Assembly (NCBI GenBank): GCA_009617715.1
Contig: VTFK01000352.1
Coordinates: forward strand, 1 to 64,000
Reading direction: 5' to 3'
Length of the DNA: 64,000 nucleotides
Origin: Plectrocnemia conspersa
Taxonomy: Eukaryota; Arthropoda; Insecta; Trichoptera; Polycentropodidae
The translations under genes and the position numbers were made by a program. Shown here piece after piece: positions 20,950 through 58,136 of the stretch (positions are counted from its first letter, which is position 1; every line of letters begins with the position of its first letter). The notes below the pieces were generated by a model, which saw only the letters and a program-made list of their open reading frames with translations, was not told the origin of the DNA and searched no databases.

Positions 20950-21283
20950 TAAGGACGGAATAGCGTATTCCGTAACGTCTCAGACTAGTAACTCTGAGGT
21001 TGCGGGTTCGAGCCCCGGCAGCGGCACTCGAATTTTTATTTATAAAAATGCGCCATTAATAAAAAAAACGGCCCTAGCTGCAGTGACATCTATTGATTAA
21101 AAATTGTATGGTACATAATAATTTATAATTAACAATATAGATGTCACCGATTCCTGGACTTATTTGTAGGTATTCCTCATGTCTGATTGACTTACTGAGC
21201 TGGTACAGATTTGCCCGTTGTAATACATTGGTCTTACTCCTGTCAGGCTACAACGGAAGTTTAATATAAATAAATAAATAAAT
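20950..21283 (+). repeat. tRNA-derived SINE (family A) with LINE-like tail hairpin
   Basis: The head has a tRNA-like anticodon arm (CTCAGA...TCTGAG) and a strong pol III B box, GCGGGTTCGAGCCCCGG. The body is shared with the minus-strand copy at 7205-7500. The tail contains a perfect 8-bp stem, CCGTTGTA (21215-21222) with TACAACGG (21249-21256), around a loop with ACATTGG and CCTGTCAGG. It ends in a TAAATAAATAAATAAA tract. The Jockey-like LINE in this window ends with the same architecture: a CCATCGTGG/CCACGATGG stem, GCATTGG and CCTGTTAGG in the loop, then AATAAATAAA. The SINE probably borrows the LINE's enzyme. It has no protein-coding capacity. Confidence 0.8.
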
Positions 21284-22199
21284 TTTATGTAATAAAAACT
21301 TCCTTTATTCATAGATAATATTTTATAATAATTAAATATTTTTCAAATACTTTTTCAGAAACATAACATTTATTTATAAAATAGTTATTTTAAAGTAAAC
21401 CCAAAAACCAATTTATGAAAAAAACATTTTAACGATATATTTGGCTTTTATAAAATCTTTTTTACTTGCTAGTTTTATGTATTATATTTTTTTTATGCAA
21501 TGTTTTTGCGCTTTAATTTCAAATATTAAGTCTAATGTAAAATATAACTATTTTGTGATAAATATGTAGGTCATCTCGAAGACCAGGCTAACTGATTAAG
21601 CGGTCGAAGTAAAGCTCCTGCTTCCTTGAAATTTTGTGTTTAAAATAAATTTATTTAGTACAATCGTATTTTATTTTATATCCTAAAAATTCTAAATTTT
21701 CTTCAAGTTCTTAATTTTGGCCAATAAATTTACTTAGGGGAAGAAACAGACTATTTGTTATTGTCTAATAAAAATCTTATTAGACTAACTTACATACCAG
21801 TGATTTTGAAATCTGTGATTCTGATTTCTGAAATCTGTCATTCTGTGGAATGTGAACCATATAATACTTTTTGTCTTATATTAAACTTGTTCTGTAAGAT
21901 ATGCACTTACTCTCAGATTTGCTTACAGTCTTTTAAAACTGTTAATGGATACCGTTCAATGTATATCCGCTCAGATACACCGAAGGAAAAAAATTGTGAC
22001 ACTCAGTTTATAGTAAGTCTTTGCGACTTATTTTATCACAACTTTTACAAAAGGTTTCAAAAAAAATTATTAAAAGTTTGGTTTTTTGTCACTTTTAATG
22101 TGAAATAATTATAAAAATACGTTTATTTAGAAGTATGTAATTTTAAATAATCAACTATGAGCTATGTAATTCCAAATAATAAATTATTATAAATCTGAC
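21284..22199. other. A+T-rich intronic sequence
   Basis: No gene seen. The open frame at 21755-22108 (117 codons) has no recognisable domain. A tRNA-like look around 21570-21650 lacks a B box. Confidence 0.35.
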
Positions 22200-22250
22200 C
22201 ATCATATTAGGTTGCCCCAATGCGTCATAATGAGCTAAAAGATGAAAATA
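22195..22250 (-). mobile_element. LINE 3' end remnant
   Basis: On the minus strand it reads GACGCATTGGGGCAACCTAATATGATGGTC, here described in parts: CGCATTGGGG, then AACCT, then GATGGTC. These are the landmarks of the terminal hairpin of the Jockey-like LINE at 58093-58136. The left stem arm is decayed. This is a very short 5'-truncated copy. Confidence 0.6.
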
Positions 22251-22784
22251 TTTATTTATATTTAGCTCATAATTTTACATATAAATCAGATTAATTTAAT
22301 AAAAGAGCAAAAGGTAAAAAACATATTAATTAGAACTAAACGTAGTTTTAAATATAAAAATTAAAATTTTTATGAAAGATATAAAAACTTCAATTTTAAC
22401 CAAAAATACAAAACTACAGCTTAATTATTTTGTATTGCTTATAATTAAATGGTAGCTAAAAAAATTTTTAAAAACACAAATAAATATCAAATACCAAATT
22501 TTATAGGTGAAATAGTTTTTAATGATAAATAATAATAATATAATAAATTTTATATATTTTATAATAAAATAATACACTAACTTTTAATGGATTTAAAATT
22601 ACTTTTAAATTTATATACTGCTAATTTTACTTATTTTTTGGTATAACATATCTGTATTTTTATAAACTAAAACAATATTTAGCAGTTCACAAATATTTAA
22701 GATAAGGGTAATCAATTTTAATATATATATAAAAAAAAGTAAATAGAACAAACCTGAATTTTGATTAATAGTAAAGGAAAAATA
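22251..22784. other. A+T-rich intronic sequence, nothing recognised
   Basis: Extremely A+T-rich with no landmarks. Confidence 0.4.
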
Positions 22785-22975
22785 ACAATATCACTTCTCA
22801 GAAGTCAAAACTTCACGTCAAAATCAATAAATTGTGCAGTCGCCGTCGCAGTGGGAATGCTCGTTGCCGATCGTTCCCACTACGACGTTGCCAGGCACTA
22901 TTTTATTGCTTTTAAAGCAAATTTTTAACTTCTGATAAGTAATAATTATTATTTTTCCCTCTTCCATTAATCAAA
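22785..22975. repeat. Foldback-type element, copy 2
   Basis: Palindromic member of the foldback family. CACTTCTCAGAAGTCAAAAC and GCCGTCGCAGTGGGAATGCTC on the left pair with GATCGTTCCCACTACGACG and CTTCTGATAAGTAATAATTA on the right. Diverged and without coding capacity. Confidence 0.7.
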
Positions 22976-23559
22976 TTTTTTTTAGCATATTTATAAATTG
23001 TCAGCTTTAAAACTCAATTTCATACACTTACTTATTTATGAAATTTCATCACTTACAAATTATGTTTATGCTTAATTTATTCTAACGATTTTGTTTATAT
23101 TTTTAAAATAACTAAAATTATATTTAATTCATATTCAAGACTCAAAACTCAAATAAGTTTAAAATGTACTTAATTCAATTACATGTAAAGCTAATACCTT
23201 TGATTTAAAATATATTATTAAAATTCTATGTATATATAATGAATCTTAATTATTTTTATATTCATATATTTAAACAAAAATAAAAAAAAAATAAAAAAAA
23301 AACTTTTTTTTTTTTTAAAAAAACTACAAAGCTAAATTTTACGTTTAATTAACTTCTTCTGTGAGAAAATTTATATTAAACTTTACACACAAAGAAATGA
23401 CAATTTTATTAATAGTGCATTTTTTTTATTTTAAATTTGAATTTTTTTTTTTTAGTTACATACTATGAAATTAAATTTTTTTTTTTTATAAAATGTAATT
23501 TGTATGATATATTCAAAAAATACAATTAAAAGTAAAAATTACATCAAAAACTACTTTTA
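22976..23559. other. A+T-rich intronic sequence, nothing recognised
   Basis: Dominated by A/T homopolymer runs (for example around 23280-23330). No gene. Confidence 0.4.
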
Positions 23560-24420
23560 TTGCTTGCGTCCCATAATGAGGTGTGACGATTGGCAAAGTT
23601 GAGCCAATCGACAATACCTGCAAAAGACCAGCAACATCAACGTATCTGCCAATATTCACTACAATATTACATGAACGTGCTTCTGAAGGCACATGACAAT
23701 AACAAACCCCGGAGCTGCGTGTAATTCCTATCCATGCCATTATGATATGACGTCAGTGGGTGCGTAGGAACCCGGCTAATGTTTCCGCCGCCCGGGGCGT
23801 AGTGCTTCGAAACGAATAGTTCGGCAAAAGCGTAATGTATACAGCAGAAACGATACGCGACACGTAACGCACGAGGGAACGTGACGCGAATGTGACAATC
23901 GTTACGCCAAAGTGTCATTAGAAATATTGGGCTAACGACTGTTGGGTTTGGCTAAGTGAGAAAAGTTTTGAAGTGCGAGTGCTAAACACGCTCGTCTACA
24001 GAACACTTTAAAATTGCGGATGGGAGCGCTTAACCTTTTGTACTTTTGGTGGTTGAAAAGAGAGATGCGTATTTTATTCGGTTTTCATGTTAGCAGGATT
24101 TAGGAGGCCAGCGACACGGTTTTCGTTCGCGTCATTTGAGCATCTTGAATACACTGACTTATAGGTACACAAAACCGCTATAAAAGCATGATTAATTTAT
24201 TAATTTTAATACTTTAAATTAAATAATACAAAGAGTGTTATTCTAAAGGCGCCTTCTTTAACTTTTCCAAGCCACAATCGCACTTGAGTCTTCCCTCGCT
24301 AAGAATTAATTAGTTCGATGGTCTTCGAGTGTGCAGGAGCGGCGCTTTGAACTGCGAATTGTTGTTTCATACCTGAAGTGTTCTTGAAATGTTATTTCAT
24401 TAAAGCAACCAACGGTTACA
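23560..24420. other. G+C-richer island
   Basis: A long block of higher G+C with frequent CG dinucleotides, strongest at 23690-24010. Two overlapping minus-strand open frames (23513-23918) have no recognisable domain. Candidate regulatory or otherwise constrained DNA. Confidence 0.3.
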
Positions 24421-25724
24421 ATTTTACAAATTAAAAACGAACTATAAGTTTCCAGACAAACAGAAGTGGCTGCCGTTATTTAGCTTGCCATAAATCGATC
24501 ATTTCAAGGGTGAAATAATTATTTCGACCCTCAATATAAAGATCTCAAAAGGACATTTATCAACTAAAAGCATCTAAATCGTAATAGTAATCTAGTGGCA
24601 TAGTTTTGCTGACAAAGGGTCCTTAAATCAATCCACAAAGGAATTTATTGACAAATTATGTAAAGCTTGGCTTTAACACAGATTATAGAATCGTAGTATA
24701 ATTAAGTGTTGAGACAATATTTTTGCAATCCATCGTGATAGTCTTAGAAATAAAAAGGTTATGAAATCAAAATATGTGTAATACGGTCTGTTCAACAATA
24801 AAATTAATCTCTACATTTTTAAAGTATAATATAATACAAGAAAATAATTTAAGATTGCGCCTTATTATATTTTATTTTGACTGATTTGTCATATAAAATT
24901 ACACGCTAAATGTATTTTTAGCTATATTTTATTTTTGTGGTATGTCTTAAAAAAAGGCTTATCTTCTCAATTAATCTCTCTTACTGTGAAAAATAATTTA
25001 AAATATATTTTTATTGCATCTCAATAGTAATTGTATAATATTTTAATTTAGCAAGTGCTGTACGTGTGTAATTATTATATAATATCAGCAGTACAGCAAT
25101 ATTTTCCACAATAGAAATAAAATTCATAGATTAATATTTTAATATCTTAAGGCAATGTATAAAATTATACACTGCCTTTACTCATAATATTATCAATAAT
25201 CGACACCTTTCTGGCAAAATATTCAATATATGCTTTCATTTCAATATATGTATTATATATTGCAATCTACATTTTGAGCTCAGCAAAATCTATGCTTTTT
25301 GAACTATAGTTTATAGTTATAAAATAATAAATTATAAAAAGTAAAAGTTTGATACTAATATAGTTTATTTGCTTTTATTACATGATTTTGTCGGATTTAA
25401 TCGGCAGATATAGAAACGGTCAAAACGCTTTTAGTTATATTGAATAAATAATAAATTAGTCAGTTGTTGTTGTTTAAATAAGACACCGCCGTGAGAACAT
25501 TTTTTGCATAGTAAATGAAAGTACCAACTATAAATCAAACATGTGTATTCGAAAATGTCCCAAATGGATGTTTGTAATTTTATTTTAGAACCATATGTAT
25601 AAAAAAACTACATACCACATTTTAATAATTAACCGTTCTACCGAAAGATGTGAAAAACAAAATTTTTCATGGAGGAGACCATACACAAACGCCGACAACA
25701 AACTACCACTTCTTCAGAGACTTT
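24421..25724. other. A+T-rich intronic sequence with one hairpin
   Basis: No gene seen. At about 25149-25178 there is a near-perfect palindrome (AAGGCAATGTATAA against its complement ending CACTGCCTT) that would fold into a stem of about 14 bp. Otherwise featureless. Confidence 0.4.
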
Positions 25725-26305
25725 CTACTTACATTCAAGCAATAAAATCGTGTCAGTGCCGTTGCAGTGTGAACACTTGTACCGAGCATTCCTACCGCAA
25801 CGGCGTCGAAACGATTCTTTTGCTTTTGACGTGAATTTTTGACTTCTAAGAAGTAATAATTGTTTTTGCGCCCTCCTATTGACCGAAATTCGGTTTGAAT
25901 ACACTTTGGTCAATACTATAATATAAAAAATGTGTAGTAATATCGGCAATGAAGCAATATGCAAAATGTGACGTCTGTCTGTAATTCTTCTTCTACGTAT
26001 TAGCTTTGTTTGTAATTTGGACTTGACCTAATGAAAGTTCTAAAACTTTAATTAGCTTTAGAACTTACAGTAGGTCAAGTTGATTTGATTAATTCGTGTT
26101 GGTTTAGTTTGGGTTTGAATAGCAAATATACGTTTCGAAACTATTAAATTGAGTTTTATGGATATTTTATAGCAGCATATAATTTCAGATAAATTATATT
26201 TTACTGGTAAAAATATATATCTACTGGTGAAAATGTATTCTGATATGATTTTACTGAAGTGACATATTTTTTAAATATTTTCGGGATAGATTCGAGACTG
26301 TTTTT
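25725..26305. repeat. Foldback-type element, copy 3, with adjoining palindromic-motif tract
   Basis: The core at about 25730-25900 pairs CGTGTCAGTGCCGTTGCAG with CTACCGCAACGGCGTCG and ends in ATTGACCGAAATTCGGTTT. The sequence at 25985-26140 (GACTTGACCTAATG..., GGTTTAGTTTGGGTTTGAA) is the inverted counterpart of 33308-33440. The tract at 26170-26305 (TTTTACTGGTAAAA, CTACTGGTGAAAATG, then GGATAGATTCGAGACTG) is the inverted counterpart of parts of 32500-33300. So one composite unit lies here inverted relative to about 32.5-33.8 kb. Confidence 0.65.
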
Positions 26306-26309
26306 TGCT

Positions 26310-26876
26310 GCGGTAACAATTGCTCTCGGGACAATTGGTTCTACGACAATTGCTCTCAGGACAGTTACTCTCACGGACAATTGCACTCAGGGACTATTGC
26401 TCTCACGGTCAATTTTTCTCATGTTTTTTTAATCTTTTGCATGTTCATCAGGAGTAAAATTGTTCGTTTCAATATTTTTTTAGTAAAGATAATTAATTTT
26501 AAAATCCAAAAATTAAGAAATGTTAAATTTGCGCATATTTGCGATTAAGTGCCACACAAACCATCCGCCAATAAAGTGTTTATGTTTATATCATATTGGT
26601 CTTTCACATGTCTATTCTGGTGAAATTTCAGTCGTCTATGTGGTAAACAAACATTTATTTGAAAATTTAAAAATATGTGTCCAGGTGTTTACGCGAAACA
26701 TCGATTTAAAATATTTGTTTTAAATCCATAGATCTTGGTTGTCGTTGTTTGAATTCCGACACGCTAATTTAGTTTGAAATTTATACTTCTGATGCAGCAA
26801 ATTAAGAAAACACGAGAGCAATTGTCCTGAGAGCAGTGTCCGTGAAAGCAATTGTCGTATGAGCAAAAGTCCATTT
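26310..26876. mobile_element. Element with iteron-type terminal inverted repeats
   Basis: The left end (about 26315-26425) has about seven tandem copies of a 15-17 bp motif with consensus near ACAATTGCTCTCAGG. The right end (about 26812-26876) has about four copies in inverted orientation (GAGAGCAATTGTCC and relatives). The interior of about 390 bp is A+T-rich and the 67-codon frame at 26520-26723 resembles nothing known. Inverted ends made of short tandem iterons suggest a non-autonomous DNA transposon or foldback element. The superfamily is not recognised. Confidence 0.6.
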
Positions 26877-27224
26877 ATTGTTTTTTTTTTTAGATTTTTT
26901 TGAGGGATTACCTGAAAATATTTGCTCTAGATTCAGGGATATCATCAAGAGTGGGGGGGGAAGTTGGCCAGTCGGTGATCGTTTTTTTTAAATATTACGA
27001 TTTCATTAATATTCCTAATAATTCAATATATGACATGAATTTTTCTGGACAAATTTAAGGGGGGGCAAATGCTCTCATCTCCCCATCAAATACTTCCCGG
27101 AAGACTAAGTGAGCAGCCGGTTTCTACTTCATGTCAATCATGTTTCAGCAACGAAGAATACTTGGACATCAAGTATCTATAGAAATTAGACAGTTTATAT
27201 GAAATTTATAAAAAGTAATAATAA
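26877..27224. other. Short intronic stretch, nothing recognised
   Basis: Contains two G-runs (near 26951 and 27060) but no gene or repeat partner. Confidence 0.35.
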
Positions 27225-28130
27225 TAATAAATTTGACCATCGTAATCTGACAGGTTACCCCAATGCGTAACGATGGTCGAAACAAAAATATTATTATTTC
27301 AATACACAAAAAATATATATAAATAAATCACAAAAAAATATACATAAAATATCGAAATTAAATGTTACAAACCGGACCAGCTCCTCGTAGCTGGCATTAA
27401 ACAGCGCAATGCTAGCGTAATAATGAGCCAGATGGCCACAGCCATAAACGAGTCGGTAAGTATGGACGTCCTAGCCCCAACGGACATCAAAAGAGGACGT
27501 GATCGTGTTTTTCGAAGACGTTCTAGAACCCAAAACTAGATTCCCTCGAGAATAGATGAATGACAGCACCATTCAGTAATTTAAAGGAATGCTTTGCGAT
27601 ATACAACTTTCTGCGAATCGTGTCCTAACGCTCCTAAAAGAAAGGCTCTAGGATATAAAACGGATAATAACCGTATGTTATTTTATAAAGGTATCTTTAA
27701 TAGCTTTTTTTAATCTTTTCTACTATATTTATTCGGGGATTCAAATTATCGATCCAGATTCAAGAATGCTACAAACTAATGTGTAATGGATCGGCAAATT
27801 GAAAGGCGTTCCTCATAACAAAGCCGAGCATCTTATTACAGAAGTCGTGTATGTATAGAGAGAACCTCCAGTTGCTCTGAAAAGTGATTCCGAGATATTT
27901 AGTGCAAAATGTTCCTACCGAGTTCGTGGGAATAAACTGGTGGTGGACGGGATTGATAAAATGACACACGTGTCACTTCCTGACACTAAAGGGCAGACGG
28001 GCAGACATCTCCATAAGAGTCCGCGACATTTATTAAATTTTAAATCATCTGCGTACAGAAGATAATTTGAATTTGTAACTGCCGTATTTATGTCATTAAT
28101 AAATAACATAAAAGCAGAGGGCCCAGGTTA
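27225..28130 (-). mobile_element. 5'-truncated Jockey-like LINE copy
   Basis: Minus-strand copy of the LINE family at 54.4-58.2 kb. It starts inside the reverse transcriptase at the block LCFLCYLLMT-equivalent before FINDINTA and keeps YLLYADDLKF with the catalytic YADD motif. It then has YLGITFQSNWRFSLYIHDFC and KMLGFVMRNAFQF, matching the longer copy. The C-terminal region (SYEELVR-like, near 27370-27400) and the 3' hairpin (GACCATCGT at both arms, 27234-27278) are also present. Frameshifts and a gap after YADDLKF make it inactive. Poly-(AAT) flanks the 3' end at 27219-27231. Confidence 0.8.
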
Positions 28131-28983
28131 GTTTGTTCTATATTTAAACCTAATCCTTTACCATTAACACACTCCAACTCTATGCAAATGTCAACAAACC
28201 CTTAACACACCGATTATCGCCCACTTTTCACGAATGTATCCCAAAGATCACGACCGAATTTAGGTATTCTACAATCGAGCGTCGCACAACACTCCAAATA
28301 AATTTCCAAATGGCAATCACGCTGAATTATGGCTGGCAATTAGGGTGTGTGCAGCTTGTGAATTGTGCGTCGGGAAATATGCAAATTCGTCGCCCGGGTA
28401 TCCGGATTACGCATTATTCTCATAATTTTTACGCGAAGCCATCGAAATTCGTGCGTTTATGGTTTCGGTTTGTACGTGCTCCGAATCCGGATTTCACACA
28501 ATACATATCTGGATTATATGGGATACTAATGAACTAAGATATATTGTAGTATGTGCGCTGTATAGCCATAGAGCGCGTGGCTTTTGTGCTCGGTTGATAC
28601 AGTGAAAATTAATTACGGGCGGAACATGATCGAACGGGTGTCTGATGGAGACGTGATGTTGTTTGTGGTCAGGACGTAAAAAACACACTGATAAAATAGG
28701 TAATGTCCTTCGAAAGTTTTCCAACACCTGATCTAGATATATTAGTATAAACTTGTATAGTATATACAAATATTATAAATTTAATAACATTTATGAATTT
28801 ACATTAAAAATTTTACACAAAACCATCACTTAATAAAATTCTCACCAGAAATGGTAAAAAAAAATATGTGCTGAAAATCATCATGAAGAAGGTATCAAAC
28901 CAAATAAAATTGAAATACTGCAAAATGACACATAAAGTAAAATAAAATAGCAAGAAAATAATTATGTAACATCAACATGAGTA
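28131..28983. other. G+C-richer island followed by A+T-rich DNA
   Basis: The block at about 28200-28700 has higher G+C. Open frames at 28310-28537 (+) and 28494-28769 (-) overlap and show no known domain. The rest is A+T-rich. Confidence 0.3.
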
Positions 28984-29940
28984 CAATAGGCCCTCGACTT
29001 TCGAACGTTCGACTTTCGCACAATTCGCTTTTTCGCACATTTAAAAAAAAACAATTTTTTTCAATTCATTTTTTTTTTAAAAAACGTTTTGATAGCGGTG
29101 AATCTTTTGCTTCAATCGGACGTTCGTATGATACAAACAGGTCTACGATATGTTCAATTTTGCAAAATAAAAATATAATTAAAGAATACATTCAAAATTG
29201 TTGAAAATAAAGATATACTTCCACACTCTTTAATTATATGTTTCCAAAAAACAATGACCAGCATCAAAAAGATGTCCCTCTGAGTATTTCAATTATTCAA
29301 GCAAAAGCTCTTAGTTTGCACAAAGATTGGAAGGACAGATTAAAAAAATATTTTAACATGGTTTTTCAAGCAAGTAACGGTTGGTTTTACAATTTTAAAA
29401 TGAGGTATTCTTTTCATAATATTAAATTTACTGGAGAATCGGCTGATGCGGATAAAGATGCTGCAAAAGAATTTATTTCATAATTATCCAAAATTATTAA
29501 AGCTGGAGAATATATTTCTAGACAAATATTTAATGTAGATGAGACAGGTTTATTTTGGAAAACTCTTTAACAATGAAAAATATGAATGAAGCTTTCACGC
29601 ACCTTGACAAATTTTTAAATATTATGGAAGATTGTGATCCCAATGGAGAACGCATATCTCAAGTGCGTAGGGCGATCAATAAAGACATAGCATGTTATAA
29701 AATACTATATGAAGAAAAGAAAAAGAATAGTGGAAAACAATTAATTCTTGATAACTTTTCAAAGGAAACACCCGCAAACCCCACTTAAACGTGTCTCTTA
29801 AACATCTTATATTTACTTGATAAATAAATATTTTAAAATACACACAATTTCAATTTTTTTTACTTCCCTCGACTTTCGTACATTAAACATTCGCACACAT
29901 TTTCAGGAACCAATTATGTGCGAAAGTCGAGGGCCACCTG
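28984..29940 (+). mobile_element. Tigger/pogo deletion derivative, copy 1
   Basis: The ends are inverted repeats: GGCCCTCGACTTTCG (28989-29003) and CGAAAGTCGAGGGCC (29921-29935). The outermost bases (CAATAGG... and ...CACCTG) match the CAGG start of copy 2 imperfectly. TA precedes the left end at 28982-28983. The interior holds the N- and C-terminal parts of a pogo/Tigger transposase, but most of the catalytic domain is missing. It could only have moved with an enzyme supplied in trans. Confidence 0.85.
29040..29788 (+). pseudogene. Tigger-type transposase remnant (CENP-B HTH + partial DDE)
   Basis: Remnant of a DNA-transposon transposase. First DNA-binding motif: RFDSGESFASIGRSYDTNRS then TICSILQNK (psq-like helix-turn-helix). 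Second: DVPLSISIIQAKALSLHKDW and FQASNGWFYNFKMRY with FTGESADADKDAA (CENP-B-type HTH). The start of the DDE domain is QIFNVDETGLFWK, which contains the first catalytic Asp. Immediately after it the sequence jumps to a C-terminal block, MNEAFTHLDKFLNIMEDCD and RAINKDIACYKILYEEKKK, ending NPT-stop (29788). The remaining catalytic residues are deleted. Stops also split the frame at about 29202 and 29481. Confidence 0.85.
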
Positions 29941-30869
29941 AAGTCATAAAAATAATATCTCATAATAATGTAAATAAAGCATCCAGATTTGACCCCATTA
30001 AAATTATGGCAAAAGTAGCTTCTAAAAAAAGGCAATAGTCAAACATACATAATAAACGCAGTATTTAAATTAAAACATGTGCTTTGCAGAAATAACACTG
30101 ATTCCCAATCCAAAAAAAAACATTACTACCCCTTACCGCTTCATATAACGAAGTTTACAGTGTGTTCAATCAATGTTTCCATAGGAAAATAATTTTCTTT
30201 ACAATAAAATATATAAACTATATATTATTTTTTTTCTTTAATGTCTAATTTTTCAAGACTATTGCTATTTATAAGCTATTTTAACTTTACCACCTGATAA
30301 CGGAAGATACATTTTCATATATATGTGCTATTTTATTTGCCTAATAAAATAAGATGCTTTTATGGCATCCATTTAGGCTGCAAAATCAAACCCTTCTGGT
30401 CTCAAAACAATATAATGCTAATAATAATATACAAATAAAGACCCACAACATTTTTTAATAATTAGGTATTACATAAATTAGTAAAAAATATTTAACAACG
30501 AGTGTTATAACAATAGCAAGAACTTTTTTTTGTTGTCTTGTAAATGAATCGAAATTAAGCAAATATATTTATATTATAAACAATGCAAACGATTAAATTA
30601 TAAGAAAAAAAATATACAGCCATTTAGCTTTCTTAAAATTTGAAGACGATATTACTATATTTTATTGACAGCTTTATTTAAATGTTTACTGTTTGGAATC
30701 GATAACTAATTTATTTTAATACTAACTTATACAATTGAAACACAATACTTGTATAGTATATATATACTGTGTAGTAGATGAACTTTTAATTTTGCTACAC
30801 CCTTTTTAAAACAAATTGTGTTAACCCTTTCGTGACAGGCAAATGATTAAACGCTTAAAAAAACGTATA

Positions 30870-30873
<4 letters not shown>
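29941..30873. other. A+T-rich intronic sequence, nothing recognised
   Basis: No gene or repeat partner seen. Contains short poly-A/T runs. Confidence 0.4.

Positions 30874-30956
<83 letters not shown>
30874..30956. repeat. (TA)n microsatellite
   Basis: About 80 bases of nearly uninterrupted TA dinucleotides, with a phase slip near 30934. Confidence 0.95.
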
Positions 30957-31943: not shown

Positions 31944-32158
31944 ACCAAAAAAACGCTGGAACTTACTTCCTGTAATGCTTTTTAATAAAGAAACTTTTAT
32001 TCAAATATGATTTAAATTAAATTTTAAGCTGTTTTTTTATGCCACGAAGCGCATAAAAAATTAAACAAACTTTATCATAACATAAGTTTAACAAACAAAT
32101 ACAACTGAATACTAAATGTAAAATAAAATTGTAAAACATCATATATTTGAATAAAAGT

Positions 32159-33300: not shown

Positions 33301-33307
33301 TTTGACA

Positions 33308-37222: not shown

Positions 37223-38209
37223 CAGGCGACCCTCAACTTTCGCACAATTCGCTATTTCGCACATTAAAAAAAATATTTTTTTTAAATTTAATTTTTTTTT
37301 TAAACGTTTTGTTAGCGGTGAATCTTTTGCTTCAATCGGACGTTTGTATGATACAAACAGGTCTAAGATAGGTTCAATTTTGCAAAATAAAAATATAATT
37401 AAAGAATACGTTCAAAATTGTGGAAAATAAAAATATATTTCCAGAATCTTTAATGATATGTTTCCAAAAAAAAAACACAGTAAAAAAAACATGGATGAAA
37501 TGGAAAATCTTTGTCATAGTAGATCGATGACCAACATCAAAAAAAGATGTCCCTCTGAGTATTTCAATTATTCAAGAAAAAGCTCTTAGTTTGCACAAAG
37601 ATTGGAAGAATAGATTAAAAAAATATTTTAACACGGTTTTTCAAGCAAGTAACGGTTGGTTTTACAATTTTTAAATGAGATATTTTTTTATAATATTAAA
37701 TTTACTGGAGAATCGGCTGATGCGGATAAAGATGCTGCAAAAGAATTTATTTGCCTAATTATCCAAAATTATTAAAGATGGAGAATATTTTTCTAGCCAA
37801 ATATTTAATGTAGATGAGACAGGTTTATTTTGGAAAACTCTTTAACAATGAAAAATATTAATGAAGCCTTCACGCACCTTGACAATTTTTTAAATATTAT
37901 GGAAGATTGTGATCCTAATGGAGAACGCATATCTCAAGTGCGTGGGGCGATCAATAAAAACATAGCATGTTATAAAATACTATATGAAGAAAAGAAAAAG
38001 AATAGTGGAAAACAGTTAACTCTTGATAACTTTTCAAAGGAAACACCCGCAAACCCCACTTAAACATGTCTCTTAAACGCCTCTTAAACATCTTATATTT
38101 ACTTGATAAATAAATATTTTAAAAAACACACAATTTCAATTTTTTTACTTCCCTCGACTTTCGTACATTCAACATTTGCACACATTTTCAGGAACCAATT
38201 ATGTGCCTG
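37223..38209 (+). mobile_element. Tigger/pogo deletion derivative, copy 2
   Basis: The left end CAGGCGACCCTCAACTTTCG starts at 37223, directly after TA (37221-37222). The right end is CTG followed by TA (38210-38211), giving the TA target duplication typical of the superfamily. Compared with copy 1, about 18 bases of the right inverted repeat are missing just inside the terminal CTG. The interior matches copy 1 closely, including the same internal transposase deletion. Confidence 0.87.
37310..38063 (+). pseudogene. Tigger-type transposase remnant, copy 2
   Basis: Same arrangement as copy 1: GESFASIGRTFVTYKQV-like HTH start (decayed), CENP-B-type region around 37550-37680 (ASNGWFYNF then a stop) and FNVDETGLFWK. 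This is fused directly to MNEAFTHLDNFLNIMEDCD and AINKNIACYKILYEEKKKNS, ending at stop 38061-38063. The junction after the Asp-containing block is at the same place as in copy 1, so the deletion happened before both insertions. Extra frameshifts and stops make it non-functional. Confidence 0.85.
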
Positions 38210-41671: not shown

Positions 41672-42466
41672 CAATTTTTTTTATTTTAAAAGAAAACAAA
41701 TGTTTATTTAACATACATACATCTGAGCTAAGTTGGAAATTTCAACGGACAATTAAAAATATATTATATAATCGAAGAAACCAGACATTGATGTCATTAA
41801 TTAAATATTTGCAAAATTCAAAATCTTTCACTATTAAAAAAATAATGAAGTCTTTAGCTATTCTTCAAAAGCAAAAAGATATAAAATGGGGAAAGAAATT
41901 ATTCGCAGATTGTTTAATGGCTCGACGACTCTATTAAATCATTAGAATCCATTGAATAAATTAAAAAATTATTATTGGCGCAACGATAAGAATAATAACT
42001 TTTTTAAGCCTTACAGAGAATAGTGTAAAAAAACCAACAGCGTACGGATTAATAGAAAAATAATTAAAATATTTTAATCCACGGGTAAGAGAACGAATAA
42101 CTTACAGTGTATATTTGAAGCCTTGATATTAATTAACCCAGAAATGCCCAAGAAATTTTGTTCTCTTAAAATTTCATTTATAAATAAAAAACAGTGGCAC
42201 GAGTTTAGTGACCTACCCATGGGACAGTGGGCATATCTGGGTTAAACCAATATCAACACAAAATTATTTAAAATAAATCACTAGAGAAGATCGAACTTCT
42301 GTGCCACACTGCACTTTAATGACGAATACCAGCGTTGACGAATCAGCGACTGTCCTTAAAAGAGAATGCGAGACAACGAAGTACACGCTACATCGCTTCT
42401 CCCTCTCATATACATGTACACGCACACAATAACAAACCAGCATCCTTATCCCGAGCGTACTCTACC
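41672..42466 (+). mobile_element. Interspersed repeat, copy 1 (partner at 53.2-54.0 kb)
   Basis: About 795 bp nearly identical to 53226-54022, from TTTTATTTTAAAAGAAAA to CCGAGCGTACTCTACC. It includes the blocks GAGCTAAGTTGGAAATTTCA, GGCTCGACGACTCTATTAA and CACTAGAGAAGATCGAACTT. It lacks the left inverted repeat seen in copy 2. A TTAA-flanked MITE sits inside it at the same position in both copies. Confidence 0.8.
42133..42245. mobile_element. TTAA-flanked MITE (piggyBac-like), copy 1
   Basis: A 113-bp unit that starts TTAACCCAGAAATGCCCA and ends GTGGGCATATCTGGGTTAA. The ends are inverted repeats and both carry TTAA, the target site of piggyBac-type elements. Too short to code for anything. 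Confidence 0.75.
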
Positions 42467-50136: not shown

Positions 50137-50139
50137 TTA

Positions 50140-51195
50140 TGCCTGCACTACACTCTCTGGAAGTTGTCCGAACCGAAGTTACAACTGAAATCGGCCGAGA
50201 CCTACGACTTCGAGTAAGCGACCCACTGCCGCAAATATCATATGCCGTCCGGACGGTGGCCGGGAATGACGTCCAGACGGCGGCTTCTGTCACGTACAGC
50301 TGGCATATTTGCGCGCGATCAAAAAATGTGCCAAATAATCGCAATTTTTAAATTGTCATATTATTAAAATTACACTACTGATATTATTAAAAGTTTGTGT
50401 GGGCACTCACCAATACAATATCAGTGAAAACTTTTCGGTCGTAAATATTCAATTTACGCAAAATCTTTGTCGGCTTTTGCAAAATGCCATAAGGCATAAA
50501 AATGATACTTTAGAATACGAACACCACATCTGTGACTATCCTAGAATTTGTCGCCATCGATTCTAAATAAGAATTCGTTATGGTGTGACATTTATATTAA
50601 CTAATCTAGGAAAATTCATAAGGATATTCGAAACGATTTTTTTTAACAAAATCAAGTACCACTAATTATTTTTTAATTATTTAATTGTATATGAAGAAAA
50701 AATAAAATAACGATATTTGTTATAAGAATATACTATCAAAAATATAATTAATCCCTTTTGGTGCCCTAAAATATTCAAAGATGTCAGTAAGAGTCTGTTG
50801 AAGTCCCCGATAAGCATGTGGTATTATAACTTTACAACGTGACATGCGTGTTAACCATAGGACGCCTACGCGCATACTGAAATTGCGCCGAGTTACTCGT
50901 TCTATCTCAGTTTGCGAAACACCATATCATTATCTCTCTCACTCTCGTCACTTAACACGCGAGAGAGCGAAAGGGAAGTATCTCACCGCTCGCGCTCGAA
51001 AGAGCAGCTCCTACTTCGGTCTCTGACTCTGGTTCGGAAGCGCTCGAAGCTGGCCAAGTCGACTGAATTACCCCCATTTTACCTCCTATTCTCGGTAACC
51101 TCGAACAACTTCCGAGAGATTATAGAACGGACAGAACCGCACTCGACCGAAGTAACCCTGAAGTAACCCAACTTCCAGAGAGTATAGTACAGGCA
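50140..51195. mobile_element. Harbinger-like non-autonomous DNA transposon
   Basis: Left end TGCCTGCACTACACTCTCTG, then GAAGTTG (50140-50166), is the inverted complement of the right end CAACTTCCAGAGAG ... GTACAGGCA (51169-51195). The outer 27 bases match with two differences. TTA flanks both sides (50137-50139 and 51196-51198), a 3-bp target duplication typical of PIF/Harbinger elements (TWA). The interior has no transposase. The central part is repeated at 62975-63787. The assignment to Harbinger rests on target-site length and sequence only. Confidence 0.75.
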
Positions 51196-51198
51196 TTA

Positions 51199-51949
51199 TA
51201 TTTTATGTTGTGGGTGATTTTGATTTAACTATCGCCTTTAGTAGTTCGTTATCAATTTAAGGCTTAATAACTGTCGCCTCCATCATTTTTAAGAAGCACC
51301 ATTACACTCCACGTTTATTAACAATCAAAACCATTGCTTAGTTTTTTTATTTTGGGTCCTTATTTTATATCAAAGCAAAAATAATATCTACGTGATTTTT
51401 ATCAAGTTGAAATTAAAATGGTAAAACTAGCAATTATTTACCTAGCAATCCAATAGATTATTTGTAATTTTTATTACATAAAAAAATAAATAATATCTTA
51501 ATTTATTAAACAGAATCATACACATATTTTTTTAGCGAAAAGATCCTTCTGAATATAATCTATAGTTATAAGAACAATATATGTTTTTTAACGTTACCTA
51601 AATAATTCATAATAATGAAAAGTTAATATTGACTATTTAATGAACTTCGGAGGTCCAGAATTAAATAGTAAATTATTGGAAAAATAATCTATGAATATAA
51701 TTTCACGATCAAACTTATTTAAATTGTAAAATGATATTCAGTGAATCAAAACTGTTTATTTAGCAAGACTAAAAATATTTTCATGATAATTTTCGTATCG
51801 ATATAAAATAAATTATTAATTTCTATAACCGTCGTCTTTGATGGAAGGTTAAAGCGTAGGTTGCGAGAATTTAAACAGCAATGATAATGTTTTTTCGTTG
51901 ATACTTATAACATAACAATTGTAAGCTGAAAATAACGTGAGCACACTTA
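51199..51949. other. A+T-rich sequence, nothing recognised
   Basis: No gene or repeat partner seen. Confidence 0.4.
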
Positions 51950-52660
51950 AAAAAATATCTCTCTGTTTAGATTCATAATACGCCCAGTGTCATTTCAGAC
52001 CAAAACTCAAGATATTCGAGTGGCTTCTAGTGGGTTTTGAAGACTCGCCACCGCAAAATTCAATAAAGACCTTTCGTCCTTGTTTGGGCAGGTCCTTCCC
52101 CACGCTCCCGTTTAAAATCGATTAACCGGATCATAAACGGAGAGATTACAATATGCGAAACAGCTTCTGTTTAAACCAATGATTAACGCTGAAACTTCAC
52201 GTTTTGATTCAAGCCATACCTTACGCAAAGTATAAAGTTTAATGAAAAGAAGCCCACACGCTTTCAAGAATAAATTTTCAATTGTGTGCAAACTTTGATA
52301 GTATAAGCCTCGTAACTTTCAAACTAAACGCCACAATAAGTTACCTAACCGACCGTACGTAACACAATATGTGCTTTATAATACACTGTATATGCTCGAA
52401 TTGCCAACAATCTCAATTATCCCCCGTATAGAATGGTCAAGTTTAATATTTCATTTATAAATTACATCCGCGGCCATATTTTATTAGATGTCGCGAAAGG
52501 TCGCTCTCGGACAGAGTCGTAACGAGACATCTTTTTACGACCGTCAAAATCCGTCGTAAAATGACGAAAAGCACTCGAAATGACACAAGTTTAGCCATCG
52601 TTGTGACATTGTTCCCAAAGGATTACAGGCAGTTGAAAAGTGTAGTTCTAAAGGAATATG
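51950..52660. other. G+C-richer island with duplicated hairpin segment
   Basis: Higher G+C than the flanks. The segment 52533-52650 has a counterpart at 61241-61355. Both contain TTTTACGAC, an 11-base loop and GTCGTAAAA (perfect 9-bp stem), then ATGAYGAAAAGC, CTCGAAA, GACACAAGTTT and ATTGT...GCATTGT-like blocks. No open frame of interest. Possibly regulatory, a small structured RNA, or an old MITE. Confidence 0.5.
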
Positions 52661-53150
52661 TTTGGTGTGACAAATACTTTCACAGTTAATTTATTTTACA
52701 TTTTGCATTACAAATCCCGAAACGAGTGTCGTTTTTTTCAATTAAAATTTTAACAGTCAATTTTGCTTTAGCCCATGATACCTGAGTACGTATTTTATAA
52801 TATCTATATTGGTGCACATCTGGAATCTACAATTTAATAATTTAAAAAAAATTGGTTCGCAAAATTTACGATGGCAGAATTTATTCGACAGACCTTGCTC
52901 CTTTCGACTACTTTTATTAAGATTAAAGTAAAAAGCTCCTGGTGATTCAAGGTGAAAATCGTCTAAAACAAATTAGACGATCAAAGTGAAAAGTTGCTAC
53001 AGACTTTTGTCTGAATTTCGATGGTGTCGGCTTACTGGTTCATCTGTATCAATTTAGCGTAAGCTTCACTGGTGACAAACTCAAGGCTAACAATGAAGAA
53101 GTCATATGTAAATTTAATTAAAAATATAAAGATAGGTTACCAATCTTAAT
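52661..53150. other. A+T-rich sequence, nothing recognised
   Basis: Short imperfect inverted repeats around AAATTAGACGAT (about 52950-52990). No gene. Confidence 0.4.
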
Positions 53151-54022
53151 GTACGCTCGGGATAAGGATTCCGGTTTGTTATTGTGTGCGTGAACTGTGT
53201 GGCTCAAAACAATTTCGCTCAGAATATTTATTTTTTTTATTTTAAAAGAAAATATATGTTTATTTAACATACATACATCTGAGCTAAGTTGGAAATTTCA
53301 ACGGACAATTAAAAATATATTATATAATCGAAGAAACCAGACATTGATGTCATTAATTAAATATTTGCAAAATTCAAAATCTTTCACTAGTCAAAAAAAT
53401 AATGAAGTCTTTAGCTATTCTTCAAAAGCAAAAAGATATAAAATGTGGAAAGAAATTATTCGCAGATTGTTTAATGGCTCGACGACTCTATTAAATCATT
53501 AGAATCCATTAAATAAATTAAAAAATTATCATTGGCGCAACGATAAGAATAATAACTTTTTTAAGCCTTACAGAGAATAGGGTAAAAAAACCAACAACGT
53601 ACGGATTACTGGAAAAATAATTAAAATATTTTAATCCACGGGTAAGAGAACGAATAACTTACAATGTATATTTGAAGCCTTGATATCAATTAACCCAGAT
53701 ATGCCCAAGAAATTTTGTTCTCTTAAAATTTCATTTATAAATAAAAAACAGTGGCACGAGTTTAGTTACCTACTTATGGGACAGTGGGCATATCTGGGTT
53801 AAACCAATATCAACACAAAATTATTTAAAATAAATCACTAGAGAAGATCGAACTTCTATGCCACACTGCACTTTAATGACAAATACAGCGTTGACGAATC
53901 AGCGACTGTCCTTAAAAGAAAAAGAGAGACAACGAAGTACACGCTACATCGCTTCTCCCTCTCATATACATGTACACGCACACAATAACCAACCGGCATC
54001 CTTATCCCGAGCGTACTCTACC
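53151..54022 (+). mobile_element. Interspersed repeat with terminal inverted repeats, copy 2
   Basis: The left arm 53151-53192 (GTACGCTCGGGATAAGGATT ... ATTGTGTGCGTG) is the inverted complement of the right arm 53975-54016 (CACGCACACAATAACC ... TCCCGAGCGTAC). The rest from about 53226 matches copy 1 at 41672-42466. An 88-codon stretch (53239-53502: FNIHTSELSWKFQRTIK, then WKEIIRRLFNGSTT) is shared with copy 1 but goes out of frame there, and I do not recognise it. It appears to be a non-autonomous DNA transposon of about 870 bp. The superfamily is unclear, as no target duplication was found. Confidence 0.7.
53690..53802. mobile_element. TTAA-flanked MITE (piggyBac-like), copy 2
   Basis: A 113-bp unit from TTAACCCAGATATGCCCA to TGGGCATATCTGGGTTAA. 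It has perfect 18-bp inverted ends including the TTAA target. It occupies the same position in the host repeat as copy 1, so it inserted before the host repeat was duplicated. Confidence 0.8.
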
Positions 54023-54407
54023 GGCTGGCATCTTTTTGTATACAAATAATTATTTGCATTTTAATTTTGATGTGGTCAGGTGTAGGGAGCCTTAAGAACG
54101 GTCCTCAAAAATCATGTCATAAATAAAAAAATTAGCACCTTGTACTATGTTATTAAACCGTAATTTGGGAAAATCGTAAAAAATATATTCAACATGATTT
54201 ACTAAAAATTAGTATTTAATAATTATTATGTATGTAATATTTATGCGGCTAAATTTAATTCATATATTTTCTACGAAGATAAAACGAAGTTTGATTATTT
54301 TTTTAATTAACAGATTAATTTCAATTGTACCCTTTTTTCAATTTTGTTTTTACGAAATCGTTGCTTTTCTTTTCACATATTTTTGTAAACGTTTGTTTTG
54401 ACAAAAT

Positions 54408-55171
54408 ATGATTTTTATCCACAGTTATGATTTCAAGTATCTATTTATTATGTTATCGCTCGTCATTATCGGACGTCTACTTACATTAGCTCCAGTAATG
54501 GACATAATTAATATTATTGTTGAAAAAATGGACGCAAAATTCGCTGCACAAGCGAAGTTGATTGCGGAACAGCAATCTCTAATTGCGCAACTAAAAAGTC
54601 TGCTAAAAATTCAAGCTGCAACCCAGCAGCAACAGCTCACAAAGAGAAGAAAAAATAAAAAAATAATCGCAAAATCCATGGACTCTAGGCCAAGCAATGA
54701 GATGGTGATAGGCTCAATTTCGTCGTCACCAATTCAACCCGCAGTCTCACCGACTCGTCGACGACACGCGTCAGCTCCTTCGGTTGCAGAGAAAACCCCA
54801 ACGCCTGTGCCCGATGTCTCGCCATTTGCCTGGACCGAAGTCAGGAAGAAGAATAAACAAGCGCGCAATCAGCTTCTTCGCGGGTCTGGACAGCAGGATG
54901 GGTTAATAAAAGCAGCTTTAAAAAATGAGACATCTACGTGCTCTACTTGCACCGGGATACAACCGCGGATGCAATTATGGTATATCTAAAAGAAAAACTA
55001 AAATCATGTGATGTGTCGGTCTCGAAAATCATTACAAAGGGCACAAGTTATGCATCATTCAAAATTGCAGTTCCTGATGCCAAACTAAATGAGGTTATGT
55101 GTCCAGAGTTATGGCCATCTGGATGCTCATTTAAAGAATGGAGATTTCGGAAAGGCGTTAAACCTTCCTAG
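54408..55171 (+). pseudogene. LINE ORF1 protein (frameshifted)
   Basis: ORF1 encodes the RNA-binding particle protein of the LINE. The first frame (54408-54989; a second good start is ATG at 54498) begins with a hydrophobic run. It continues into a likely coiled coil (IVEKMDAKFAAQAKLIAEQQ, SLIAQLKSLLKIQ), a Gln-rich and basic patch (QQQQLTKRRKNKK) and the motif SPFAWTEVRKKNKQ. The second frame (to 55171) continues with LYLHRDTTADAIMVYLKEKL, SYASFKIAVPDAKLNEV and PELWPSGCSFKEWRF, the RRM-like C-terminal block seen in many LINE ORF1 proteins. The two parts are joined by a frameshift near 54925-54940, so the protein is broken. Confidence 0.75.
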
Positions 55172-55182
55172 GAAGAGTTCGA

Positions 55183-58007
55183 TGGATCCCCTTTCGATTT
55201 TTTATCAAAACGTAAGGGGATTAAATTCAAGACCGTCGACTTTCTTTCCGCTATCTACGCACAGGAGCATGACATCATCGCTATAACGGAAACGTGGCTG
55301 ACTGATTCCGTGCTGAACGCTGAGCTCTTCGACGATCGTTACACCGTGTTTAGAAGAGATCGATGCAGCAGAGGCGGAGGTGTGCTCTTAGCTGTCCGCA
55401 GAGATTCAATTCATGCGCGAAGGCTTGCGCATCTCGAAGCTGACGGAGAACATCTCTGGATCCTCGTCGAGACGAAACGAGCTTCAATCGTTATATGCGT
55501 GTTATATTTTCCGCCAAATCAATTAAAAGACGTTACTGCTGCATTTTTTCGTAAGATTCAGTCGGAATCTGAATATTTTTTGAAGAAAAAAATGTATCAT
55601 CTTGGGTGATTTTAATTTACCTACGAACATTAGTGCCAATATTGACATAAGTTTAATAAGTAATATTTTTTAATTTAAATCAAATAAATTGTGTCAATAA
55701 TAATTTTGGTGACAAATTAGATCTAATTTATACAAATGTAAATAATTGCATAGTAATTAAGAGCGAATTCGTATTGGTGTCGGAAGATAATTATCACCCG
55801 GCGCTAATGATAAAATTAAATATAAACAAAAAATGGCATAACTACGAATGAGTTGGAATGTGTGAGCGATCGGAATGATCTCGGATGGTCGTTTGGAAAT
55901 TGTGTAGATTTTGGTTTATTAAATAATTTACTTTTAGGTATGGACTGGAGCCGAGTTGGCGGGTGCGTTGATGTTGAATCTTCCCTGGCGGCCTTCTATG
56001 AGGTTCTTTATCGTGCATTCGACCAGCTCTTTATTAGAAAGCGCCCTCGAGTGCTTAACGTGTCATATCCTAGATGGTTTTCTCATGAGATCATCTCATT
56101 GCTAAAAAGAAAGCACGCCTTTCATAAGTTATGGAAGAGATCGGGACATCCATCTGCTCTAGAGAATTTCGTTCATTAAGAGCACGCGTTAAGTGTTTGA
56201 TAATTTCCTGTCATCGCAATCATTACAAAAAATTGCCAAAACAAATAATTAATGATCCCAAAGCTTTCTGGAAATTCATTAGCACTAAACGCGCTACTCA
56301 GTCTACGTTGAAAGTGATGAACCTCGACGATAAAACATTGGACGGTTCACAAAATATTTGCTGACGGTTTTGCGCAATATTTTCGTTCTGTTTTCGAGGA
56401 ATATTTTTCGCCTTCTGCTCAGTCGCTTCCTTCTTCATGTTCTTGGTCTTCAGTACTGACCATCAGAGAAACTGAGCACTCAGATCTTAAATACGGATTT
56501 AATAAATTAAAGACAGGGCGTTCTTCTGGACCTGATTTAATTCCCGATTTTATTTTGAAGGGTTGCGAAGTAAGTCTCGCTGCTCCTCTAAAATGTATTT
56601 ATGATCTGATACTCAAAACATCATCATTTCCTGATTTATGGAAATGCACAAAAGTCACCCTATTCATAAAAGGGTGACAAATTATATATAAAGAATTATA
56701 GACCAGTAGCAGTGTTGTCAGCTCCTGCTAAATTATTTGAAATAATTATTCATAAATATCTTTACAATCACTTTCAGCAAGTTTTATTAGACCAACAGCA
56801 CGGGTTTCGTCCTGCCCGTTCCACTGTTACTAATCTTCTGTCGTTCACCAAAACGGTGACAACTTCTCTCGATGCCGGAATTCAAGTAGACGTCGTGTAT
56901 ACAGATTTTGAGAAAGCCTTTGACAAAGTTTGTCATACGTTATTATTAAAAAAATTGTCGAACCTCGGTTGCTCAGATAATTTAACTCGGTTATTTTCAA
57001 GTTATTTGAGCGATCGTAGACAGTTTGTAACGTATGGTGGCCGATTGTCAAAGGAATATTTTACCCCTTCGGGGGTTCCTCAAGGATCCAATCTGGGACC
57101 TCTGCTTTTTGTGTTATTTATTAATGACATAAATACTGCAATTAAACATTCAAGTTTTCTTCTGTACGCAGATGATTTAAAATTATATAAATGCATTCGA
57201 TCTGTTGCGGACTCCTTCTCTCTACAAAGTGATTTAGACTCTCTGTGGAGATGGGCTTCCGTTAACCGTCTGCCCTTTAGTGTCGGAAAGTGCCATACTG
57301 TGTCATTTTCTCGATCCCGTTCGCCATCAGCTTATTTCTACCATCTCGGTGGTAACATTTTGACTAGAGAAACTTCCATTAAAGATCTCGGAATCACTTT
57401 CGAGAGCAAATGGAGGTTCTCTCTACACATACACGACGTCTGTGATAAATCTTCCAAGATGCTCGGCTTTGTTATGAGGAATGCCTTTCACTTTGACGAT
57501 CCGTCAGTTATTCGCATCCTCTATGACACCTTAGTTCGTAGCATTCTTGAATCGGGATCTATAATTTGGAATCCCCGAATAGCCAAATATTCCCTTTTAG
57601 TGGAAAAAAATTCAAAAAAAGGTATTTAAGATACCTTTACAAAAGGACATTTGGTTATTATCCGTACTTATATCCCAGCGCCTTTCTTTTAGGAGCGTTG
57701 GGATATGATTCGCTGAGTTCTCGCAGAAAGCTGTATATCGCTAAGCATTTTTTTTAAATTACTAAAAGGTGCTGTCGACAATCCAGCTATTCTCGAGGAA
57801 TTCCAGTTTTGGGTTCCTGAACATTTTCGAGAATCACGATCGAGACCTCTTTTGATGACCGTTAGGGCTAGGACATCCGCACTTGCCGACTCGCCTATGG
57901 CTGTGGCCATCCGGCTCCTTAATACTCTGGCATTACATATTGACCTATTTAATGTCAGCTACGAGGAGCTGATCCGGTTTATTTCATTCAATTTTAATAT
58001 TTTATAA
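55183..58007 (+). pseudogene. LINE ORF2: endonuclease and reverse transcriptase (frameshifted)
   Basis: ORF2 nicks the target DNA and copies the RNA there (target-primed reverse transcription). The endonuclease starts MDPLSIFYQNVRGLNS and continues IIAITETWL, which holds the catalytic Glu. SRGGGVLLAV, YFPPNQ and ILGDFNLPT follow, then EDNYHPAL, a decayed form of the SDH motif. The RT domain has NYRPVAVLSAPAKLFE, QHGFRPARSTVTNL, VVYTDFEKAFDKV (first catalytic Asp), SGVPQGSNLGPLLF and LLYADDLKLY (YADD). The C-terminal part has MLGFVMRNAFHF, LGYDSLSSRRKL and VDNPAILEEFQFWVPEHFRE, ending at stop 58005-58007. Longest intact piece: 56712-57629. Frameshifts occur near 55240, 55600, 56170-56365, 56675 and 57625. 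Confidence 0.88.
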
Positions 58008-58092
58008 TTTTTTTGTTATGTTTAAGTATTTTTATATTTATGTATATATACTTTTTTTTTTTTATGTTTTATAAATTTAAAATTTTGTTTTC

Positions 58093-58136
58093 GACCATCG
58101 TGGCGCATTGGGGTAACCTGTTAGGCCACGATGGTC
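58093..58136 (+). promoter_or_regulatory. LINE 3' terminal hairpin
   Basis: A perfect 12-bp stem with a 20-base loop containing GCATTGGGG and AACCTGTTAG. The same hairpin with changed bases closes the LINE copy at 27234-27278 and the SINE at 21215-21256. Likely the reverse transcriptase recognition site, by analogy with stringent-type LINE/SINE pairs. Confidence 0.7.

What the first reader, a model, noticed from the sequence alone, without database searches (positions are those of the whole stretch)
20950..58136. SINE and LINE share a 3' hairpin with compensated stem changes
The LINE ends with stem GACCATCGTGGC/GCCACGATGGTC around a loop with GCATTGGGG and AACCTGTTAG (58093-58136). The tRNA-headed SINE at 20950-21283 ends with stem CCGTTGTA/TACAACGG around a loop with ACATTGG and CCTGTCAG (21215-21256). 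Both are followed by (TAAA)n. Stem bases differ between them but stay paired in each, while the loop landmarks persist. The truncated LINE copy at 27234-27278 keeps the fold too. This pattern fits a SINE whose tail mimics its partner LINE so that the LINE reverse transcriptase recognises it. The sequence similarity is seen directly; the partnership is inference.
Basis: partly seen in the sequence, partly recalled or inferred. Interest (0 to 1): 0.8.

Follow-up and report, generated by a model that had tools for sequence, protein, structure and literature searches.

The report
LINE and SINE sharing one tail hairpin
A short parasitic DNA repeat ends in the same small RNA hairpin as self-copying elements of its genome, with stem letters changed in matching pairs, as expected if it borrows their copying enzyme; such pairs are known from other organisms.

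Summary
The hairpins are in the sequence. The window's own genome (392.9 Mb, unnamed) could be searched, so the claim was tested on families. The SINE consensus (41 rows) folds as a 10-bp stem, a 4x4 internal loop GCAU/UCAG and an inner hairpin; the LINE has the same plan (12-bp stem, GCAU/UUAG). Of 10 shared stem pairs, 6 are identical, 4 differ on both sides yet stay paired, none is broken. The loop motif occurs 2,307 times genome-wide, its reversed control 0 times. All 20 LINE copies taken through ORF2 similarity (from the best 48 of 82 matches) carry the hairpin; they form two lineages, 54% identical at the ORF2 C-terminus. Older copies (lineage C) show it in 14 of 15 loci, some weakly. 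So a LINE group and a SINE share a 3' tail by descent, with compensated stem changes: a SINE/LINE pair of the stringent-recognition kind, not found in print here. Corrections: the 58-kb LINE is not clearly the partner; the window's SINE copy folds poorly alone; the tRNA head was not confirmed; target-site duplications gave no signal. Recognition by the reverse transcriptase is inferred.

The parts
20953..21283 (+). SINE copy, from the conserved GGACGG start to the (TAAA)n tail
   Evidence: 41 matches listed genome-wide (itself included; 4,538 first-look candidates, 40 scored); consensus from 41 rows
20965..21030 (+). promoter-like head of the SINE; B-box-like GGTTCGAGCCC at 21005-21015
   Evidence: read by eye; not recognised as tRNA by ARAGORN or Rfam
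21215..21256 (+). SINE 3' hairpin: outer stem 21215-21224/21247-21256, internal-loop strands 21225-21228 and 21243-21246
   Evidence: 67.0 bits, but this copy was in the model's training set
21257..21283 (+). SINE tail AAGTTTAATATAAATAAATAAATAAAT, (TAAA)n
7230..7500 (-). second, decayed copy of the same SINE; hairpin largely lost
   Evidence: not found by model R1
54402..58160 (+). LINE copy, lineage A: ORF1-like frame 54402-54989 (no Pfam match, assigned by position), broken ORF2 pieces 55172-55609 (no Pfam match; endonuclease by position) and 56670-57629 (reverse transcriptase, PF00078); 5' end not located
58093..58136 (+). LINE 3' hairpin: outer stem 58093-58104/58125-58136, internal loop GCAT (58105-58108)/TTAG (58121-58124), inner stem TGGG/CCTG, GTAA loop
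   Evidence: identical in 26 of 30 aligned copies, this one included
58137..58160 (+). LINE tail TTAATTTAATCTAAAATAAATAAA
27228..28129 (-). truncated, older LINE copy (grouped here with lineage C)
   Evidence: 73.1% identity to 57090-58144
27233..27280 (-). its 3' hairpin, loop motif CATTGGGGTAACCTGTCAG, two mismatched pairs in the stem
   Evidence: in the model's training set

Best explanation
A group of non-LTR retrotransposons (called here LINE lineages A, B and the older C) ends in one RNA hairpin: an outer stem of 10-12 pairs whose letters vary but stay paired, a symmetric internal loop GCAU/UYAG, a short inner stem UGGG/CCUG and a variable tip, followed by a TTAATTTAAT-like spacer and (TAAA)n. 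A short non-autonomous element (SINE) carries the same module at its 3' end, by descent from a LINE of this group (likeness shown, direction inferred). Most likely the LINE ORF2 protein binds this module in its own RNA and in SINE RNA and starts target-primed reverse transcription at the (TAAA)n tail, so the SINE is copied in trans (inferred). Paired outer stem plus conserved internal loop suggests that the protein reads the stem as a shape and the internal loop by sequence (inferred).
For: SINE consensus and LINE fold to the same plan. Four of 10 shared outer pairs are changed on both sides, 0 on one side, 0 broken. 20 LINE copies were picked through ORF2 similarity from the best 48 of 82 matches: 20 of 20 carry the hairpin (motif exact in 17, one mismatch in 3; covariance model in 20 of 20). 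One lineage A copy has a single open 943-aa frame with endonuclease and RT domains and its hairpin about 80 bases after the stop codon (coordinates). B and A share 49 of 90 residues at the ORF2 C-terminus, so the hairpin outlasted much protein divergence. On 38 selected sequences: covariation score 0.273 vs shuffled 0.202 (0 of 500 as high), double-change cells 45 vs 17.1 (0 of 500). SINE and LINE share the spacer and (TAAA)n. In dead SINE copies stem changes are mostly uncompensated (46 single broken, 19 single G-U, 2 double kept of 410 cells), so pairing was kept in source elements. Precedent: ZfL2 ORF2 binds its tail stem-loop, loop specifically and stem generally (PMC4176376, abstract and passages).
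Against: No assay of binding or retrotransposition. The window's SINE copy itself folds poorly. RNAalifold on the 38 rows gives only -1.44 kcal/mol with 10 of the 16 pairs; 'pairs with a change on both sides' did not exceed shuffles (8 vs 6.4; 96 of 500) and a structure slid by +1 has 9; poorly paired rows had been dropped beforehand. Best SINE copies are 96% identical to the consensus, while LINE-A copies reach 99% to the window copy, so SINE and young LINEs were not at their peak together. Target-site duplications gave no signal for SINE (205 of 1,000 permutations as high) or 15 truncated LINE-A copies (176 of 1,000). Two of 20 loop-motif loci lack the 3' arm (L240, L241). A more distant LINE (40% identity, on a mussel-symbiont record) has no match to the model. 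Only LINEs close to the query P0005 were sampled; other LINE groups of this genome were not tested as rival partners.
Confidence: 0.82

Rival explanations
1. The tails are shared by descent, but the enzyme recognises only the (TAAA)n end or takes the RNA unspecifically; the hairpin is kept for RNA stability or 3'-end formation.
For: Both elements end in (TAAA)n. A hairpin at the end of a transcript could protect it. No binding data here.
Against: The internal loop GCAT..TYAG is kept in sequence in the LINE lineages and the SINE consensus, which protection alone would not require; in ZfL2 elements the stem-loop itself is required (PMC4176376, passages).
Confidence: 0.12
2. The direction is reversed: the hairpin arose in the SINE and a LINE acquired it.
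For: Direction cannot be read from the hairpin alone.
Against: 20 of 20 ORF2-selected LINEs of two lineages and 14 of 15 loci of older copies have it; only one SINE family was seen with it, though other SINE families were not searched for.
Confidence: 0.04
3. Two unrelated palindromes that look alike by chance.
For: Short palindromes are common in A+T-rich genomes (general knowledge).
Against: Loop motif 3 in the window vs mean 0.00 in shuffles, 2,307 vs 0 in the genome; colinear tails.
Confidence: 0.01

Closest known systems
UnaL2/UnaSINE and ZfL2 (L2-clade stringent LINEs and their SINEs)
   Same: 3' stem-loop followed by a short tandem repeat, shared by LINE and SINE; in ZfL2 specificity lies in the loop and the stem works as paired structure (PMC4176376, abstract and passages).
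   Different: Different loop (GGAUA in UnaL2 and the carp pair, passages of PMC2653535), different repeat, vertebrate host; here a 4x4 internal loop with an inner stem.
Monocot L1 / ZmSINE2 tail hairpin (Ohshima)
   Same: LINE and SINE tails form the same hairpin, conserved loop letters, compensatory stem changes (PMC3747384, passages, figure legends and Table 1).
   Different: Plant L1 clade, poly(T) tail, UCU loop and CGAG flank; here a LINE of a probable arthropod with a (TAAA)n tail.
PxSE5 / PxLINE1 of the diamondback moth
   Same: Insect SINE whose 43-bp 3' end is 84% identical to a LINE 3' end; LINE ends in a tetranucleotide repeat (PMC8010984, passages).
   Different: 5S-derived SINE, ATGT repeat, 13-bp target-site duplications of the LINE reported; the words 'hairpin' and 'stem' do not occur in its main text.

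Membership tests
SINE with a LINE-derived tail (SINE/LINE pair) | Non-autonomous short repeat with many dispersed copies | tested here: met
   About 330 bp; 41 matches listed, 4,538 first-look candidates; 40 listed, 6,231 candidates with the consensus
SINE with a LINE-derived tail (SINE/LINE pair) | 3' end homologous to the 3' end of a LINE of the same genome | tested here: met
   Tails 55 of 80 (A), 58 of 79 (B), 57 of 79 (C) columns identical, (TAAA)n included; same fold
SINE with a LINE-derived tail (SINE/LINE pair) | Pol III promoter head (tRNA, 5S or 7SL derived) | tested here: inconclusive
   B-box-like GGTTCGAGCCC seen; no tRNA by ARAGORN at default, no tRNA, 5S or 7SL match by Rfam in 20 copies at E up to 5
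SINE with a LINE-derived tail (SINE/LINE pair) | Mobilised in trans by the LINE | not testable with these tools
   Needs a retrotransposition assay
Stringent-type LINE | Conserved 3' stem-loop plus short tandem repeat | tested here: met
   20 of 20 ORF2-selected copies have the stem-loop
Stringent-type LINE | ORF2 requires the stem-loop for retrotransposition | not testable with these tools
   Needs an assay
UnaL2-like tail (L2 clade) | GGAUA loop as in UnaL2 and the carp pair | tested here: not met
   Tips are GUAA, UUUG or UUAC within the inner stem; this concerns the tail only, membership of the L2 clade was not tested by a tree
[quoted passage not shown]
   PF03372 and PF00078 in one 943-aa frame of L272; the clade was not placed

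The most novel reading that the evidence does not exclude
The internal loop GCAU/UYAG is a shared recognition code of a whole LINE group, kept over deep ORF2 divergence, and the SINE exploits it to be copied by several LINE lineages in turn, so that it outlives any one partner; the outer stem evolves freely as long as it pairs.
Probability: 0.35. Interest if true: 0.6.

Novelty: new member of a known kind. Interest (0 to 1): 0.42.

Why it matters
It adds a documented SINE/LINE pair from a probable arthropod, where few are described (PMC3747384 Table 1 lists one protostome pair, Gecko; the abstract of PMC8010984 counts 23 insect SINEs among 234). With several LINE lineages and one SINE sharing one fold but differing in stem letters, it gives a natural experiment on what a LINE protein reads in its RNA: stem shape, internal loop sequence, or tip. 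Lineage A is young (copies up to 99% identical to the window copy), and B looks so by eye, so the question can be tested.

Tried and rejected
Host name: named homologues of the RT (firefly, bean beetle) and of the hAT transposase (aphids, horseshoe crab, but also a coral and olive) suggest an arthropod and name no host.

Target-site duplications: exact-match test 0 of 41 SINE copies with 8 bp or more (control mean 1.3), 1 of 15 truncated LINE-A copies (control fraction 0.033); alignment-based tests no better than permutation. Taken as uninformative (A+T-rich flanks, age). One hairpin-only lineage B insertion (L236) shows a 12-13 bp duplication by eye.

Chance palindromes, and the SINE as source of the LINE hairpin, were considered and rejected (see rivals). 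A form 'D' (GGGAAAACC tip) was followed: 3 places in the genome; the two fetched copies lack the 3' arm, so it was not used.

Rows dropped before the covariation count (A3): LINE loci L208, L212, L225 (indels or poor pairing), L223 (no model hit), L240, L241 (no 3' arm), near-identical lineage B copies L233, L234, L235, L237, L238, L239, and the further near-identical A copies. Of SINE hairpins, 10 of the 41 aligned rows and 2 of the 4 others found were used. Leaving out poor rows makes the percentage paired look better than it is.
Full report
What was checked. The three hairpins lie at the stated places. The LINE hairpin is a perfect 12-bp stem, far more stable than shuffled sequence (-28.9 kcal/mol, z -6.58, 0 of 200 shuffles). 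The truncated copy at 27.2 kb keeps the stem with two mismatches (z -3.20, 1 of 200). The SINE copy at 21.2 kb is weak alone (z -1.72, 12 of 200) and folds otherwise. So from the window alone the claim of a common fold was plausible, not shown. The loop motif is specific: 3 matches in the window, mean 0.00 in 100 shuffles. No Rfam family matches the window at gathering scores.

Families, not copies. The window's genome is held (392,940,481 bases, 959 contigs). From 40 further SINE loci (one of them, L201, only 67% identical) plus the window copy a consensus was built (41 rows); median divergence from it is 9.2% (range 5.5-23%). Its tail is CCGTTGTAAC-GCAT-TGGGC-TTAC-GCCTG-TCAG-GTTACAACGG followed by AAGATTTAAT and (TAAA)n, and folds at -21.9 kcal/mol as outer stem (10 pairs), 4x4 internal loop, inner stem (5 pairs). 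The LINE gives the same plan with a 12-pair outer stem and a 4-pair inner stem. Aligned from the loop outward, 6 of 10 outer pairs are identical, 4 are changed on both sides, none on one side and none is broken. If four differing sites on each arm were placed at random, coinciding sites alone have a chance of 1 in 210 (a simple calculation, not a tree-aware test).

The hairpin is a LINE feature. The 3' end of the 58-kb LINE has 40 listed matches, itself included, up to 99% identical to it; the hairpin is identical in 26 of the 30 aligned. A divergent relative next to one of them (in L151) led to older copies, grouped here as lineage C without a tree: of 15 loci matching the 3' part of that query, the query's own locus included, 14 have a hairpin match at E up to 1; three of these are weak (L212, L222, L225, E 0.14-0.26) and one locus (L223) has none. 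The loop pattern GCATTGGN{3,8}CCTGTYAG occurs 2,307 times in the genome (1,139 and 1,168 by strand), its reversed control 0 times. Of the 100 places listed, 42 have the 22-base SINE form, 57 the 20-base LINE form and 1 is 21 bases long (counted by hand). Twenty of the 57 LINE-form places, chosen for diverse tips, were fetched: 9 are lineage B (GGGTTT-type tip; most near-identical to each other), 3 lineage A, 6 lineage C, and 2 (L240, L241) have no 3' arm; the sorting is by eye.

A test that does not start from the hairpin. A related RT protein (P0005) was searched in the genome: 82 matches scored of 12,704 first-look candidates. The 3' flanks of 20 of the 82, all among the 48 best-scoring, were fetched. 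All 20 carry the hairpin: by eye 15 of lineage A and 5 of lineage B. One lineage A copy has a single 943-aa open frame with endonuclease (PF03372) and reverse transcriptase (PF00078) domains, its hairpin about 80 bases after the stop codon. The ORF2 C-termini of B and A are 54% identical over 90 residues. LINEs of other groups in this genome were not sampled. A LINE at 40% identity on a mussel-symbiont record has no match to the model, so the module is not universal among such LINEs.

Covariation. On 38 selected hairpins (26 LINE, 12 SINE; alignment A3) the structure has 84.9% paired cells (shuffled 80.3, 0 of 500 as high), 45 cells changed on both sides (shuffled 17.1, 0 of 500), covariation score 0.273 (shuffled 0.202, 0 of 500); every slid version is lower on these three measures. 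The number of pairs with any double change, 8, is not above shuffles (96 of 500), and the version slid by +1 has 9. RNAalifold recovers 10 pairs, at only -1.44 kcal/mol. Relatedness is not corrected for, and poorly paired rows had been dropped, so this supports but does not prove. The lineage C string has a G.U pair where lineages A and B have G-C and the SINE A-U, a plausible intermediate. Within dead SINE copies stem changes are mostly uncompensated: 328 cells unchanged, 19 single changes to G-U, 46 single broken, 2 double kept, 4 double broken, 11 with gaps, of 410. So pairing was maintained in the source elements, not in the copies.

Which LINE is the partner. SINE tail identity is 55 of 80 columns to A, 58 of 79 to B and 57 of 79 to C, (TAAA)n included: not decisive. 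The loop strand TCAG is shared with B, the 3' arm GTTAC with C. The SINE burst is older than the youngest LINE copies: best SINE copy 96% to consensus against 99% of LINE-A copies to the window copy. The likely donor was an older member of the B/C side (inference).

Mechanism. In zebrafish L2 elements the ORF2 protein binds the tail stem-loop through a region between endonuclease and RT, reading the loop specifically and the stem generally (PMC4176376, abstract and passages). The pattern here, free stem letters with pairing kept and a constant internal loop, is what that would leave behind. The step from pattern to recognition is inference.

Known or new. Compensatory changes in a hairpin shared by LINE and SINE tails are published for monocot L1/SINE (PMC3747384, passages and legends); shared stem-loops for vertebrate L2/SINE pairs (PMC4176376 and PMC2653535, passages); an insect pair with a shared 43-bp tail for the diamondback moth (PMC8010984, passages). 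Searches for this hairpin's letters and for insect or hairpin-bearing pairs listed no report of it in the held library, of which I looked into only the papers named; the library lacks most subscription papers, and Repbase could not be searched. It is therefore filed as a new member of a known kind.

Noticed in passing
SINE consensus body; window 21083-21147: The SINE body contains an 11-bp inverted repeat GTGACATCTAT...ATAGATGTCAC, a second strong hairpin present in the consensus.
   Followed up: no
L236 (C15:9258-9717): A LINE lineage B insertion reduced to the hairpin and tail, flanked by a 12-13 bp duplication seen by eye: an extreme 5' truncation that ends at the hairpin.
   Followed up: partly
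L235 and L245: LINE tails run straight into SINE body sequence by eye, so these LINE copies may sit in SINE copies, which could order the two in time.
   Followed up: no
L150 and L155, LINE-A tails: The tail restarts with a second AATCTAAAATAAA unit, as if reverse transcription had slipped or restarted in the spacer.
   Followed up: no
L240, L241: A rare LINE form with GGGAAAACC tip (3 places in the genome) that lacks the 3' arm in both copies read.
   Followed up: partly
window 10951-12757: Fragments of a hAT-like transposase (DUF4371 in one piece; named relatives in aphids and a horseshoe crab among others).
   Followed up: no
window 41674-42466 and 53230-54022; 29009-29921 and 37233-38206; 50205-51016 and 62978-63791: Three other pairs of long repeats in the window, 88-97% identical, not identified.
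   Followed up: no
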